From positions 74,036 to 138,035 of the forward strand of contig JAKSIU010000002.1 in the NCBI GenBank assembly GCA_024398615.1: a DNA stretch of 64,000 nt. The letters are read 5' to 3'. The notes beneath the pieces were generated by a model. It was not told the origin of the DNA and did not search any database. It was given only the letters and a program-made list of their open reading frames with translations. The position numbers and the translations under genes are program-made. Shown here piece by piece: positions 16,006 through 20,211 of the stretch (positions are counted from its first letter, which is position 1; each line of letters starts with the position of its first letter). The DNA comes from Bacteroidaceae bacterium. GTDB lineage: Bacteria > Bacteroidota > Bacteroidia > Bacteroidales > Bacteroidaceae.

Positions 16006-17196
16006 TTAAAGGCTGTTATATTCTTCAAGGGCCTGCGCCAGAAGATTCAGTGCCACTTTCAGTTCTTCAATGTCAAGGACGTAGGCCATACGGACCTGGT
16101 TCCGTCCCATGCTGGGGTCTGAATAGAATCCGGTACCCGGGGCCAGCATTATTGTCTTCCCGTCACGGCGGAAATCGGTGAGACACCATTTGCAGAACTT
16201 CTCGCAGTCATCTATGGGAAGCTGCACTGTAGTATAGAACGCTCCCATAGGAATTGGGGAGTATACTCCGGGAATCTTGTTCAGACCGTCAATGAGACAT
16301 TTGCGGCGGGTGATGAACTCCTCGTAAGTGTTCGTGAGATACTCTCTGGGAGCTGATATTGATGCTTCGGCAACAATCTGTCCGATAAGGGGCGGGCTGA
16401 GACGTGCCTGGCAGAACTTCATGACGGCATCACGTACCTCATGGTTCTTGGTGGCAAGTGCACCTATTCTTATGCCGCATTCGGAATATCGCTTTGATAC
16501 CGAGTCAATGAGAATGACGTTGTTCTCAATCCCTTCCAAGTGACAGGCCGATATGTATGGCGAACCGGTATATATGAATTCGCGGTAGACCTCGTCCGAG
16601 AACAGGAACAGGTCATATTTTTTGACCAGATCGCGGAGCTGGAGCATCTCCTTGCGGGTGTAGAGGTATCCTGTTGGGTTGTTCGGATTGCATATCAGAA
16701 TGCCTTTTGTCTTTTCAGTGATCAGTTCCTCGAATTTTTCGACAGGTGGCAGCGCAAATCCGTCTTCAATGGTTGAGACAATCGGCTTGATGACCGCACC
16801 GGCCGATACTGCGAAGGCCATATAGTTGGCATAGGCAGGTTCCGGTACTATGATTTCATCACCGGGATTCAGACAGGTCATGAATGCGAACAGAACCGCC
16901 TCGGAACCGCCGCAGGTTATGATGATGTCATCCGGATTGAACTTTATCTGATACTGTTCATAATAATCGCAAAGCTTCTTTCTCAAACTTAAGAAACCCT
17001 GGCTGGGCGAGTATTCAAGAACCTTGCGGTCTATGTTCTTTGCCGCTTCAAGTCCGATTTCGGGTGTGGGCAGATCTGGCTGTCCTATGTTGAGGTGGTA
17101 GACGTGTACCCCTTCGGACTCTATTTTCTGTGCAATGCCTGACAGCTTGCGTATGGGCGAACTTGGCATTATCTCAGCGCGGGTTGAAATTTTCAT
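16006..17196 (-). CDS. PLP-dependent class I aminotransferase (aspartate aminotransferase-like)
   Basis: A 396-residue cytosolic fold-type I enzyme. Conserved features seen are LNIGQPDLPTP near 35, the NPNNPTG motif near 170, the tyrosine/aspartate SDEVYREF near 200, the PLP lysine in DSVSKRYSECGIRIG near 233, and the substrate-carboxylate Arg in RNQVRMAYV near 370. It is of the AspC/alanine-aromatic aminotransferase type. Specificity cannot be fixed, although the neighbouring divergent trpB2 makes an aromatic or aspartate role conceivable. It is transcribed divergently from the Trp attenuator with a promoter box 33 bases upstream, and is followed without a gap by the GH-like gene. Confidence 0.9.
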   Translation of the reverse strand: MKISTRAEIMPSSPIRKLSGIAQKIESEGVHVYHLNIGQPDLPTPEIGLEAAKNIDRKVLEYSPSQGFLSLRKKLCDYYEQYQIKFNPDDIIITCGGSEAVLFAFMTCLNPGDEIIVPEPAYANYMAFAVSAGAVIKPIVSTIEDGFALPPVEKFEELITEKTKGILICNPNNPTGYLYTRKEMLQLRDLVKKYDLFLFSDEVYREFIYTGSPYISACHLEGIENNVILIDSVSKRYSECGIRIGALATKNHEVRDAVMKFCQARLSPPLIGQIVAEASISAPREYLTNTYEEFITRRKCLIDGLNKIPGVYSPIPMGAFYTTVQLPIDDCEKFCKWCLTDFRRDGKTIMLAPGTGFYSDPSMGRNQVRMAYVLDIEELKVALNLLAQALEEYNSL

Positions 17197-17228
17197 TGTT
17201 TCCTTTTAATATATATGCAATTTGATTG

Positions 17229-17236
17229 CAAAGATA
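17229..17236 (-). promoter_or_regulatory. Putative -7 box for the aminotransferase gene (TATCTTTG)
   Basis: The minus strand reads TATCTTTG, 33 bases from the start codon at 17196. No clean -33 element is seen. It is divergent from, and close to, the trpB2 promoter. Confidence 0.55.
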
Positions 17237-17257
17237 ACCATTTTTTTGCCTTTGCAG

Positions 17258-17289
17258 TTGATATTATTCAAATTGATTGCATAACTTTG
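17258..17289 (+). promoter_or_regulatory. Promoter of the trp leader and trpB2
   Basis: A TTGA at 17258-17261 (one change from TTTG) lies 20 bases before TAACTTTG at 17282-17289, the spacing expected for Bacteroidetes -33/-7 elements. Transcription should start near 17293, about 20 bases before the leader-peptide ATG and far upstream of trpB2. The message therefore carries the whole attenuator. Confidence 0.65.
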
Positions 17290-17312
17290 CATCGGACAAG
17301 AAGAAAAACAGC

Positions 17313-17375
17313 ATGGATTTGAACAGGTATTGGCGACTCTATTGGCAAACCGTACGATGGCGTGGGGTGGCATAA
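17313..17375 (+). CDS. Trp-rich leader peptide of the trpB2 attenuator
   Basis: A 20-codon open frame reading MDLNRYWRLYWQTVRWRGVA. Three of 20 codons are Trp (17331, 17343, 17358) and two are Tyr, far above background for a rare amino acid. It lies between a promoter box and trpB2, is followed by competing RNA hairpins, and its stop codon TAA overlaps the last base of the antiterminator's 5' arm. This is the arrangement of classical ribosome-mediated attenuation, as in E. coli trpL, although there is no sequence similarity to that peptide. I name no gene symbol because the element is inferred, not recognised. No Shine-Dalgarno is evident beyond AAGAAAAA, which is usual in Bacteroidetes. Confidence 0.8.
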   Translation: MDLNRYWRLYWQTVRWRGVA

Positions 17376-17423
17376 TCCTGTATCCCGACTTTCTGTAAAG
17401 TCAATCATGCATGTCCGTCCCAC
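17362..17423 (+). promoter_or_regulatory. Antiterminator hairpin of the Trp attenuator
   Basis: GTGGGGTGGCAT (17362-17373) can pair with ATGTCCGTCCCAC (17411-17423): 12 pairs including two G-U, with one bulged U. The 3' arm is the same sequence that forms the 5' arm of the terminator, so the two structures exclude each other. The 5' arm starts two bases after the third Trp codon and ends on the first base of the leader stop. A ribosome terminating there would mask it and allow the terminator. A ribosome paused at the first or second Trp codon would leave it free. A small hairpin GACTTT/AAAGTC (17388-17402) lies inside the loop. I see no clear protector hairpin (region 1:2). Confidence 0.75.
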
Positions 17424-17454
17424 AGAATCAAGAGAGCAGTGAGGCGGATTTTTT
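17414..17454 (+). terminator. Intrinsic terminator of the Trp attenuator
   Basis: TCCGTCCCAC (17414-17423) pairs with GTGAGGCGGA (17439-17448) through nine pairs, one of them G-U, with one C-A mismatch. The loop is 15 bases and six T residues follow (17449-17454). It ends nine bases before the first trpB2 ATG. A terminator directly in front of a gene and after a promoter makes sense only as a conditional stop. Confidence 0.8.
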
Positions 17455-17463
17455 ATAACCGGA

Positions 17464-18843
17464 ATGAAAACAGAATACAATATGAAACAGAAAAGATTTT
17501 TCCTCAGCGAGTCTGAGATCCCGTCACAGTGGTATAACATTCAGGCCGATATGACCACCAAGCCCATGCCGCTCAAGAACCCGGCAACAGGCGAACCCAT
17601 TAAACCGGAAGACCTTTATCCCATTTTCGCAAAGGAGTGCTGCCATCAGGAACTGGATATGGAACACCAGTGGATCGATATTCCTGAGAAAGTCCGCGAA
17701 ATGTACACCTATTATAGAAGCACACCTCTGGTGCGTGCTTACGGTCTTGAGGAGGCTCTCGGAACTCCGTGCCACATTTATTTCAAGAACGAAAGCGTAA
17801 GTCCTGTCGGTTCTCATAAGTTGAATTCGGCAATTGCACAGGCATACTACTGTAAGGAAGAGGGCGTTACCAATGTGACCACTGAAACCGGTGCAGGACA
17901 GTGGGGTACAGCTCTTTCATACGCAGCCAAAGTGTTCGGACTGGAGGCAGCTGTCTATCAGGTCAAGATAAGCTACGAGCAGAAGCCGTACCGCAGGAAC
18001 ATGATGCAGGTGTTCGGAGCACAGGTGACAGCATCGCCTTCGATGTCGACCCGTGCCGGAAAGGATATCCTTACCGCAACCCCGAACCATCAGGGATCAC
18101 TTGGAACTGCAATATCCGAGGCTGTCGAACTGGCCCGCACTACTCCTAACTGCAAATACACGCTGGGATCGGTCATGAGCCATGTTTCTCTGCATCAGAC
18201 TGTAATAGGACTTGAGGCTGAAAAGCAGATGGAAATGGCCGGTGAATATCCTGATGAAGTCATTGCATGTTTCGGTGGCGGCTCCAATTTCGGAGGCCTG
18301 GCCTTCCCGTTCATGCGCCACTATTATGACGGAACCCACAAGGATACCCGATACATTGCAGTCGAACCGGCATCGTGCCCCAAACTGACAAAGGGTAAGT
18401 TCATGTATGACAATGGTGATGAGGCCGGATATACTCCACTCATGCCAATGTTCACTCTTGGTCATAAATTCGCGCCTGCCAATATCCATGCCGGAGGTCT
18501 GCGTTTCCATGGCGCGGGGGTCATTGTGTCGCAGCTGCTCAAGGACGGAATCATGGAAGCTATGGACGTTGACCAGCTGGAGACATTCCAGGCAGGAATG
18601 CTTTTCGCACAGAGTGAAGGTATTGTGCCGGCTCCGGAATCATGTCATGCCATTGCCGCGACCATACGTCGTGCAAAGGAATGCAAGGAAACCGGCGAAA
18701 GCAAGGTGCTGCTGTTCAATCTTACCGGTCACGGACTCATGGATATGAGCGCCTACAACCAGTTCCTGAGCGGAAATCTGGTGAATTACGCCATGAGTGA
18801 CGAGGAAGTGACAGAAAATCTCAGAAAGCAGAATATGCTCTGA
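17464..18843 (+). CDS. trpB2: TrpB2-type tryptophan synthase beta chain
   Basis: A 459-residue PLP enzyme of the long TrpB2 class, which condenses indole and serine to tryptophan, usually without a TrpA partner. Visible motifs are RSTPLVRAYGLEE near 80, the PLP lysine in SPVGSHKLNSA near 118, ETGAGQWGTA near 141 and the phosphate-binding GGGSNFGG near 272. Normal TrpB is about 400 residues; the extra N-terminal segment (FFLSESEIPSQWYNI) is typical of TrpB2. ATG at 17482 is an equally plausible start and gives more room after the terminator. The Trp-codon leader upstream independently supports a tryptophan role. The dipeptidase gene follows after 21 bases. Confidence 0.93.
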   Translation: MKTEYNMKQKRFFLSESEIPSQWYNIQADMTTKPMPLKNPATGEPIKPEDLYPIFAKECCHQELDMEHQWIDIPEKVREMYTYYRSTPLVRAYGLEEALGTPCHIYFKNESVSPVGSHKLNSAIAQAYYCKEEGVTNVTTETGAGQWGTALSYAAKVFGLEAAVYQVKISYEQKPYRRNMMQVFGAQVTASPSMSTRAGKDILTATPNHQGSLGTAISEAVELARTTPNCKYTLGSVMSHVSLHQTVIGLEAEKQMEMAGEYPDEVIACFGGGSNFGGLAFPFMRHYYDGTHKDTRYIAVEPASCPKLTKGKFMYDNGDEAGYTPLMPMFTLGHKFAPANIHAGGLRFHGAGVIVSQLLKDGIMEAMDVDQLETFQAGMLFAQSEGIVPAPESCHAIAATIRRAKECKETGESKVLLFNLTGHGLMDMSAYNQFLSGNLVNYAMSDEEVTENLRKQNML

Positions 18844-18864: not shown

Positions 18865-20211
18865 ATGAAACAGTATATAGAACAGAACCGTGACAGATTC
18901 TTTGAAGAGCTTTTCTCCATTCTGAGAATTCCTTCAATCAGTGCCAAACCTGAAAACAGGCCGGACATGGAACGCTGTGCCGCCCGTCTTGCGGAACTTC
19001 TGCTTGAAGCGGGTGCCGATACCGCCCAGGTCATGCCGACAGCCGGCAATCCTGTCGTCTTCGGTCAGAAAATGATAGATCCGACCCTCAAGACGGTGCT
19101 GGTCTATGGCCATTATGATGTCCAGCCACCTGAACCTCTGGAAAAGTGGAACAGCGATCCGTTTGAGCCTGTTATCCACGACGGCGCGATATGGTGTCGC
19201 GGAGCCAACGATGACAAGGGTCAGCTGTTCATGCATATCAAGGCATTCGAATTCCTGGTACGTTCAGGTCAGCTTAGACATAACGTCAAGTTCATCTTCG
19301 AGGGTGAGGAGGAAACCGGAAGCGCATCGCTTCCAGCCTTCATCAAAGCCCACCATGAGCTTCTGAAGGCCGATGTCTGTCTGGTTTCGGACACCACCAT
19401 GATATCGGATAAGGTACCGTCAATCAACTGCGGAATGCGCGGTCTTTCATATCTGGAAATCAAGGTGACGGGACCGAACAAGGACCTTCATTCCGGTCAT
19501 TACGGAGGTGCTGTGGCCAACCCTATCAATGTGCTCTGCGAAATGATAGCATCGCTCATGGATGCCGACAACCGTGTCACGGTGCCGGGATTCTATGACA
19601 ACGTGGTCGAACTTTCGCAGGCAGACAGGGATATGCTGGCCCGTGCCCCCTTTGATATGGAAGAGTATAAGAACTTTCTTGATATTGATGAGGTCAAGGG
19701 CGAGAAGGGTTACACGACACTGGAGCGTACCGGCATACGTCCGTCACTTGATGTCTGCGGCATCTGGGGCGGTTATACCGGTCAGGGTGCCAAAACTGTT
19801 CTGCCGAGCGTGGCTCATGCCAAGATTTCAGCCCGTCTGGTACCGAACCAGAGGAGCACGGATATAACCAGGCTTATTTCAGACCATCTGAAGAAGATAG
19901 CCCCGCCGTATGTGAAGGTCGAGGTCACTCCGTTTGAAAGCGGTGACGGCTTCCTTATTCCAATCACGTCCGATGCCTATCGTGCCGCATCGCGCGCAAT
20001 GGCTCAGGTATATGGCATTGAACCGGTTCCCAGCCGCGGTGGTGGCAGCATTCCGATTCTTGCGGAATTCCAGAAGGAACTTGGCTTGGATCCGTTGCTC
20101 ATGGGCTTCGGCCTGGAGCGTGACACCATCCACAGCCCTAATGAGAGCTATCTGCTCAGACAGCTCTTTGCCGGTATGGAGAGCATCGTGCTGTTCTATC
20201 AGTATTATTGA
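18865..20211 (+). CDS. M20-family dipeptidase/peptidase
   Basis: A 448-residue cytosolic zinc metallopeptidase of the M20 (CNDP/PepV-like) group that splits dipeptides or small peptides. Metal and catalytic motifs are present: VYGHYDVQP near 77, the bridging Asp in RGANDDKGQ near 114, EGEEETGS near 147 and the His of KDLHSGHYGG near 207. The lid (dimerisation) domain spans about residues 190-350. It is 21 bases from trpB2 with no terminator between, so it is likely read from the attenuated trp promoter. Supply of amino acids from peptides under the same control as Trp synthesis would be logical, but that is inference. Its end overlaps the convergent gene by seven bases. Confidence 0.9.
   Translation: MKQYIEQNRDRFFEELFSILRIPSISAKPENRPDMERCAARLAELLLEAGADTAQVMPTAGNPVVFGQKMIDPTLKTVLVYGHYDVQPPEPLEKWNSDPFEPVIHDGAIWCRGANDDKGQLFMHIKAFEFLVRSGQLRHNVKFIFEGEEETGSASLPAFIKAHHELLKADVCLVSDTTMISDKVPSINCGMRGLSYLEIKVTGPNKDLHSGHYGGAVANPINVLCEMIASLMDADNRVTVPGFYDNVVELSQADRDMLARAPFDMEEYKNFLDIDEVKGEKGYTTLERTGIRPSLDVCGIWGGYTGQGAKTVLPSVAHAKISARLVPNQRSTDITRLISDHLKKIAPPYVKVEVTPFESGDGFLIPITSDAYRAASRAMAQVYGIEPVPSRGGGSIPILAEFQKELGLDPLLMGFGLERDTIHSPNESYLLRQLFAGMESIVLFYQYY

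What the first reader, a model, noticed from the sequence alone, without database searches (positions are those of the whole stretch)
17258..17482. Complete Trp-codon transcription attenuator in front of trpB2 in a Bacteroidales genome
Seen in sequence: a promoter box, then a 20-codon frame with Trp codons at 17331, 17343 and 17358. An antiterminator pairing (17362-17373 with 17411-17423, 12 pairs) has a 5' arm that ends on the first base of the leader stop. A mutually exclusive intrinsic terminator (17414-17448 plus six T) lies nine bases before trpB2. Established: this is the architecture of ribosome-mediated attenuation, well described for proteobacterial trp, his and leu operons. Inference: in Trp excess the ribosome reaches the stop at 17373 and masks the antiterminator's 5' arm, so transcription stops. 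In Trp shortage it pauses at Trp codon 7 or 11 and trpB2 is read. I know of little description of such elements in Bacteroidetes or for stand-alone trpB2.
Basis: partly seen in the sequence, partly recalled or inferred. Interest (0 to 1): 0.88.

Follow-up and report, generated by a model that had tools for sequence, protein, structure and literature searches.

The report
Tryptophan attenuator before stand-alone trpB2
A bacterium, probably from an animal gut, seems to switch on an enzyme that makes tryptophan from indole only when tryptophan runs short, using a small RNA switch of a long-known type in a sequence version that the RNA family library does not recognise.

Summary
In detail: promoter, 20-codon Trp-rich frame (MDLNRYWRLYWQTVRWRGVA*), antiterminator and terminator stand before trpB2. 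The window alone does not beat chance clearly; relatives do. Nine of 27 same-genus trpB2 loci carry this leader ('type B'). Aligned Trp codons 7 and 16 are kept in 9 of 9 and Trp11 in 8 of 9. A 25-nt coding block is identical in seven, whose trpB2 genes keep 11% of comparable codons. Most likely: classical ribosome-mediated attenuation, Trp11 the main sensor. The kind is known: Rfam RF01692 'Bacteroidete tryptophan peptide leader RNA' precedes trpB2 in two same-genus genomes, yet the window has no match to it at E<=10. New are the sequence variant, found only in its own genus among sampled genomes, and its setting: the nine type-B genomes show no trpA, trpC, trpD or TrpB1, so indole salvage is the probable target. 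New variant of a known kind; nothing tested in cells.

The parts
17258..17289 (+). promoter-like element: TTG 17258-17260 and TAACTTTG 17282-17289 (TAnnTTTG, Bacteroidetes -7 type; consensus recalled)
   Evidence: a TAnnTTTG box ends 20-32 nt before the leader ATG in 9 of 9 type-B leaders
17313..17375 (+). leader ORF MDLNRYWRLYWQTVRWRGVA*; Trp codons 7, 11, 16 at 17331, 17343, 17358
   Evidence: peptide ends TVRWRGVA in 7 of 9 type-B leaders, the other two have WRWRGAAFQFHLQK
17349..17368 (+). segment 1:2 (protector) hairpin ACC.UACG-AUGG-CGUG.GGU inside the leader ORF
   Evidence: 93.7% of cells paired in 9 sequences; 3 of 7 pairs change on both sides, all in L010/L011, which also break two of the seven pairs each
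17362..17373 (+). segment 2, antiterminator 5' arm (ends on first base of the leader stop)
17387..17402 (+). hairpin between the antiterminator arms (GACUUU-CUGU-AAAGUC)
   Evidence: other type-B leaders fold a hairpin of different sequence there (no control run)
17411..17423 (+). segment 3, antiterminator 3' arm, shared with terminator 5' arm
17413..17454 (+). intrinsic terminator hairpin (3:4) plus T-run
   Evidence: a hairpin with T-rich tail in 37 of 37 Trp leaders scanned (no shuffled control for terminators)
17464..18843 (+). trpB2 (TrpB-like PLP enzyme); start probably ATG 17482
   Evidence: NF009057 685 bits against cut-off 366, TIGR01415 582.8 against 518.85; TIGR00263 trpB 135.9 against 392.45

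Best explanation
A ribosome-mediated Trp transcription attenuator controls trpB2. Shown by sequence and comparison: a leader frame with conserved Trp codons, and three mutually exclusive pairings: 1:2 (17349-17368), 2:3 antiterminator (17362-17373 with 17411-17423) and 3:4 terminator (17413-17449 plus T's). Inferred: with enough charged tRNA-Trp the ribosome runs to the stop at 17373; its leading edge (about 12-13 nt past the first base of the A-site codon, recalled) reaches about 17385 and masks segment 2, so 3:4 forms and transcription stops near 17454. When charged tRNA-Trp is scarce the ribosome stalls with Trp11 in the A site; its edge (17355-17356) just covers segment 1 (17349-17356) and leaves segment 2 free to pair with 3, so trpB2 is transcribed. 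Without translation the terminator forms. Trp16 lies in the frozen block and a stall there would mask segment 2; it is probably kept for RNA pairing rather than sensing. Because the nine type-B genomes show no trpA, trpC, trpD or TrpB1, the likely role is to switch on indole-to-Trp salvage.
For: Nine of 27 same-genus trpB2 loci carry the leader. A sequence-only model built from those nine finds the same nine at E<1e-18 in 37 genus genomes and in a sample of 399 family genomes, always just before trpB2 (they are its training set, so this shows absence elsewhere, not independent confirmation). TGG at alignment columns 19-21 and 46-48 in 9 of 9, at 31-33 in 8 of 9. Eight codons are nucleotide-identical in 7 leaders, while in trpB2 of the same 7 only 11% of aa-identical non-Met/Trp codons are, longest identical run 3 codons. 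1:2: 93.7% of cells paired, slid partners 25-57%, covariation score reached by 1 of 500 shuffles. Folding: antiterminator in 9 of 9 when the RNA begins at the block and the terminator's 3' half is not yet made; terminator in 9 of 9 for the untranslated leader and when the first 30 nt from the block are masked. L005 and L008 have a different terminator that still pairs with the frozen block (6 and 2 of 200 shuffles as strong). trpA and trpC 0 of 9 type-B genomes against 17 of the other 28; trpD 0 of 9 against 18 of 28, one of them a fragment.
Against: The both-sides changes in 1:2 come only from L010 and L011, sister sequences that each break two of its seven pairs. 2:3 has one both-sides pair, score reached by 98 of 500 shuffles. 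The single-sequence duplex test is not significant for the window (42 of 200) and reaches 10 of 200 or less in 7 of 37 leaders. At equilibrium the full RNA from the block on folds into the terminator, not the antiterminator, in 5 of 9 leaders including the window, so the scheme needs co-transcriptional timing. L004 lacks Trp11 (WWW at 7-9 instead). In L010 and L011 the stop lies well downstream of segment 2. L007 and L009, in the same TrpB2 clade, have no leader. Lack of the Trp pathway is not specific to type B: 11 of the other 28 genomes show no trpA or trpC either, among them G018, about 100% complete, with a type-A leader. The nine genomes are drafts 77-97% complete. No expression data.
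Confidence: 0.85

Rival explanations
1. Nascent-peptide sensing as in TnaC: the conserved end of the leader peptide (TVRWRGVA) binds free Trp or indole in the exit tunnel and arrests the ribosome, and that arrest decides termination.
For: The peptide end is identical in 7 of 9 leaders and partly kept (RWRGxA) in the other two; an indole-salvage gene would be a fitting target.
Against: The block is frozen at synonymous sites too, which RNA pairing explains without a peptide role; the stall sites with the best geometry are Trp codons.
Confidence: 0.07
2. A constitutive leader and terminator: the hairpin only tunes the trpB2 level and the Trp frame is a chance or decayed relic.
For: A Trp-rich frame by itself is not very rare (68 of 5000 shuffles, 12 of 478 tiles); 5 of 27 same-genus trpB2 loci lack any such leader.
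Against: Trp codons at fixed places in 8-9 of 9 leaders and a frozen block.
Confidence: 0.05
3. Control of translation rather than transcription: the 3:4 hairpin mainly hinders translation initiation of trpB2.
For: The hairpin ends about 30 nt before the likely start at 17482.
Against: A hairpin followed by 5-8 T in 9 of 9 type-B leaders points to intrinsic termination; the hairpin does not include the start codon.
Confidence: 0.03

Closest known systems
Rfam RF01692 Bacteroid-trp, 'Bacteroidete tryptophan peptide leader RNA' (listed in PMC2864571, Table 1)
   Same: Trp-rich leader-peptide RNA in Bacteroidetes; matches stand before trpB2 in same-genus genomes G026 (49.9 bits) and G005 (49.2 bits) and, below the cut-off, before trpB at the head of a trp gene cluster in G029 (42.8 bits) (with positions).
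   Different: No match at E<=10 in the window or in L001-L012. In the type-A leaders the Trp codons are a WWW run and GUCGUAGG follows the leader stop; in the window type segment 2 lies in the last codons. The TrpB2 proteins behind the two types fall in different clades.
E. coli trp operon attenuator (trpL) and other ribosome-mediated attenuators (recalled)
   Same: Four-segment logic 1:2, 2:3, 3:4 with Trp codons just before or in segment 1.
   Different: Different phylum and sequence; segment 2 is inside the leader ORF; the gene controlled is a stand-alone trpB2, not a biosynthetic operon.
Candidate attenuator before trpB2A of Corynebacterium diphtheriae (PMC1262725, passages seen)
   Same: A predicted Trp attenuator upstream of an operon beginning with a gene named trpB2.
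   Different: Actinobacterium; the operon includes trpA; sequence relation and enzyme type not tested.

Membership tests
ribosome-mediated transcription attenuator (trp type) | short leader frame with clustered codons of the regulating amino acid | tested here: met
   aligned Trp7 and Trp16 in 9 of 9, Trp11 in 8 of 9 type-B leaders; translation itself not shown
ribosome-mediated transcription attenuator (trp type) | intrinsic terminator upstream of the structural gene | tested here: met
   (not listed by the simple scan)
ribosome-mediated transcription attenuator (trp type) | antiterminator mutually exclusive with terminator, kept in relatives | tested here: inconclusive
   9-12 of 12 pairs kept in 7 sequences, slid partners 39-53% of cells, but covariation not above shuffles; L005/L008 keep pairing with a replaced terminator
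ribosome-mediated transcription attenuator (trp type) | 1:2 protector hairpin | tested here: met
   with the limit that all both-sides changes come from two related leaders
ribosome-mediated transcription attenuator (trp type) | read-through responds to charging of tRNA-Trp | not testable with these tools
   no expression data
Rfam RF01692 Bacteroid-trp | match to the family covariance model | tested here: not met
   no match in the window at gathering score or E<=10 for 17100-17700, in the own genome at E<=0.001, or in L001-L012 at E<=10
Rfam RF01692 Bacteroid-trp | WWW run, then an antiterminator arm after the leader stop (my reading of the type-A leaders L021 and L027 that match the model) | tested here: not met
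   of the type-B leaders only L004 has a WWW run
TrpB2 / TrpB-like enzyme (NF009057, TIGR01415) | score over curated cut-off | tested here: met
   685 (cut-off 366) and 582.8 (518.85)
TnaC-like nascent-peptide sensor | arrest by free Trp in the ribosome exit tunnel | not testable with these tools
   needs an assay or structure

The most novel reading that the evidence does not exclude
In a clade of gut Bacteroidaceae that has lost or never had the Trp pathway, a genus-specific attenuator, not related by descent to RF01692, governs indole scavenging by TrpB2, and its frozen end block does double duty as RNA switch and as a nascent peptide that senses Trp or indole.
Probability: 0.07. Interest if true: 0.72.

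Novelty: new variant of a known kind. Interest (0 to 1): 0.45.

Why it matters
If true, a bacterium that seems unable to make Trp from chorismate uses a classical attenuator to decide when to turn indole (a microbial signal and uremic-toxin precursor, PMC11085991, passages seen) into Trp. It also shows one genus holding two unlike Trp leaders before TrpB2, one known to Rfam and one not, and a terminator replaced while the coding arm stays frozen. Trp attenuation in this phylum is therefore likely undercounted.

Tried and rejected
Rfam at gathering score gave only a tRNA in the window; at E<=10 only a chance snoRNA match at 17202-17311. The sequence-only model R1 found only the window among 393 genomes drawn evenly from the order, and among 399 drawn from the family the nine training leaders plus weak matches of E 0.007-0.1, which I took as chance and did not read. 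An automatic antiterminator search on 37 leaders with shuffled controls was largely uninformative (7 of 37 at 10 of 200 or less; window 42 of 200): Trp codons themselves pair with GC-rich terminators, and in L010/L011 segment 2 lay outside the range searched. A unit of trpB2 with the M20 dipeptidase 21 nt downstream was rejected: at E<=1e-20 the dipeptidase is found in 2 of 107 loci (27 genus, 80 named), L001 itself and L065, where it lies upstream of trpB2. An overlapping frame in the frozen block (MAWGG) was seen by eye and dropped. Literature, open-licence papers only: 'Bacteroid-trp' (3 papers, of which I saw passages of PMC2864571 and the listing of the other two); trpB2 with attenuation and leader (one Actinobacteria paper); Bacteroidetes with attenuation, leader peptide and trpB (none); other phrasings; trpB2 with indole salvage (four listed); trpB2 with Bacteroidetes (none). 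None that I saw describes a trpB2 attenuator in this phylum.

Full report
What is there. The 20-codon frame reads MDLNRYWRLYWQTVRWRGVA*, with Trp codons at 17331, 17343 and 17358. The partial transcript folds into the antiterminator and the 3' part into a terminator hairpin 17413-17449 followed by T's to 17454. The gene behind it is a TrpB2-type enzyme. Its start is probably ATG 17482: 26 of 27 same-genus proteins have M-x-Q-K-[KR] at that place.

Is it more than chance? From the window alone, not clearly. A short frame with three or more Trp codons occurs in 68 of 5000 shuffled copies of the intergenic region and in 12 of 478 tiles of the window. The antiterminator duplex is matched by 42 of 200 shuffles. 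The whole leader folds with z -1.34, the part after the leader stop with z -2.20. The case rests on relatives. In 37 genomes of the same genus, 27 near-complete trpB2 loci were read; fragments, the more distant TrpB hits and two genomes without a hit were left out. Nine carry the window's type of leader ('type B': L001-L006, L008, L010, L011), twelve carry another Trp leader ('type A', WWW, LQL near the end: L013-L021, L023, L025, L027), L012 is different again, and five have none (L007, L009, L022, L024, L026).

Conservation. In type B the aligned Trp codons 7 and 16 are present in 9 of 9 and Trp11 in 8 of 9. Seven of the nine share the identical block ACCGTACGATGGCGTGGGGTGGCAT. In the trpB2 genes of those seven, 350 of 459 columns are identical in amino acid but only 54 in codon; for aa-identical residues other than Met and Trp the rate is 11%, and the longest identical run is 3 codons against 8 in the leader. 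That is a constraint on nucleotides, not only on the peptide.

The missed hairpin. The block folds on itself (ACC.UACG-AUGG-CGUG.GGU, 17349-17368). In nine sequences 93.7% of cells pair, three of seven pairs change on both sides, and 1 of 500 shuffles reaches the covariation score. All those changes are in L010 and L011, which are sisters and each break two of the seven pairs, so they may be few events. The antiterminator 2:3 keeps 9 to 12 of 12 pairs in seven sequences but has a single both-sides pair and does not beat shuffles (98 of 500). L005 and L008 have another terminator, which still pairs with the frozen block (6 and 2 of 200 shuffles as strong).

Mechanism. Taking the ribosome edge as about 12-13 nt beyond the first base of the A-site codon (recalled), a stall at Trp11 covers 17349-17356, exactly segment 1, and frees segment 2; a stall at Trp16 or arrival at the stop masks segment 2 and favours the terminator. 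Trp11 is then the natural sensor, Trp7 a poorer one, and Trp16 is likely kept for pairing. Folding agrees in part: with the terminator's 3' half not yet made, 9 of 9 leaders fold the antiterminator from the block on; untranslated or with the block masked, 9 of 9 fold the terminator; but the complete RNA from the block on prefers the terminator in 5 of 9, the window among them, so the switch would have to be decided during transcription. A TAnnTTTG box lies 20-32 nt before the leader ATG in 9 of 9.

Setting. None of the nine type-B genomes shows trpA, trpC, trpD or a second trpB; 17 of the other 28 genus genomes show both trpA and trpC. Completeness of the nine is 77-97%, so one absence could be a gap, nine hardly. 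The absence is not specific: 11 of the other 28 lack trpA and trpC too, including G018 (about 100% complete), which has a type-A leader. With NF009709, a tryptophanase model by recollection, no genus genome is over the cut-off (0 of 37; two weak matches). The enzyme therefore probably makes Trp from indole supplied by others. Indole-to-Trp conversion involving TrpB1 and TrpB2 is reported for Thermococcus kodakarensis (cited in PMC11085991, passages seen). This role is inference. One type-B genome, G008, is the record JAFYMP010000028.1, a Bacteroidaceae MAG from water-buffalo cecum, hence the gut setting; the window's own source is not known to me.

Known or new. Rfam RF01692, 'Bacteroidete tryptophan peptide leader RNA' (listed in Table 1 of PMC2864571, passages seen), is a predicted cis-regulatory leader of the same kind. 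It lies before trpB2 in same-genus genomes G026 and G005, and a sub-threshold match lies before trpB in G029. Most type-A leaders are not reported by its model at E<=1: 2 of 12 are. The window leader is not a member by that model. The TrpB2 proteins behind the two types belong to different clades in a tree of 38 rows, the 27 genus proteins and 11 of the 80 named ones, so common descent of the leaders is not shown; L004, with WWW and the type-B end, hints at a link. L007 and L009 are nested in the type-B clade without a leader, which suggests loss. Among 80 further TrpB2 loci of mostly Bacteroidales (the best 80 of 594 or more), I judged 16 to have a Trp-cluster leader (L037 is the same contig as L008); eight others had Trp-containing frames that I did not count. 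The window variant was found only in its own genus among the genomes sampled.

Verdict. A convincing Trp attenuator of a known kind in a new sequence variant and an informative physiological setting. No step has been tested in cells.

Noticed in passing
window 17227-17236: A TATCTTTG box on the minus strand (inverted copy of the leader's TAACTTTG) may be the promoter of the divergent aminotransferase gene 16006-17196; a relative of that gene also lies beside trpB2 in L005 and L008.
   Followed up: partly
L014, L020, L023, L025 near trpB2: Long inverted repeats with CAATTGGGG...CCCCAATTG-like or related ends beside trpB2 in several same-genus genomes (seen); Rfam miRNA and plastid families match such stretches. 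They look like repeat-type mobile elements.
   Followed up: no
G029:C1:99694-99826 (L036): A sub-threshold RF01692 match (42.8 bits) before trpB at the head of a trp gene cluster; the same genome has a type-A leader before trpB2 (L017), so one genome may hold two Trp leaders.
   Followed up: partly
L013-L020, L023, L025: WWW/LQL Trp leaders that Rfam's RF01692 model does not report at E<=1, so the family is probably undercounted.
   Followed up: partly
window 18865-20211: M20-family dipeptidase 21 nt after trpB2 on the same strand, possibly co-transcribed here but not found next to trpB2 in the other 106 loci searched.
   Followed up: yes
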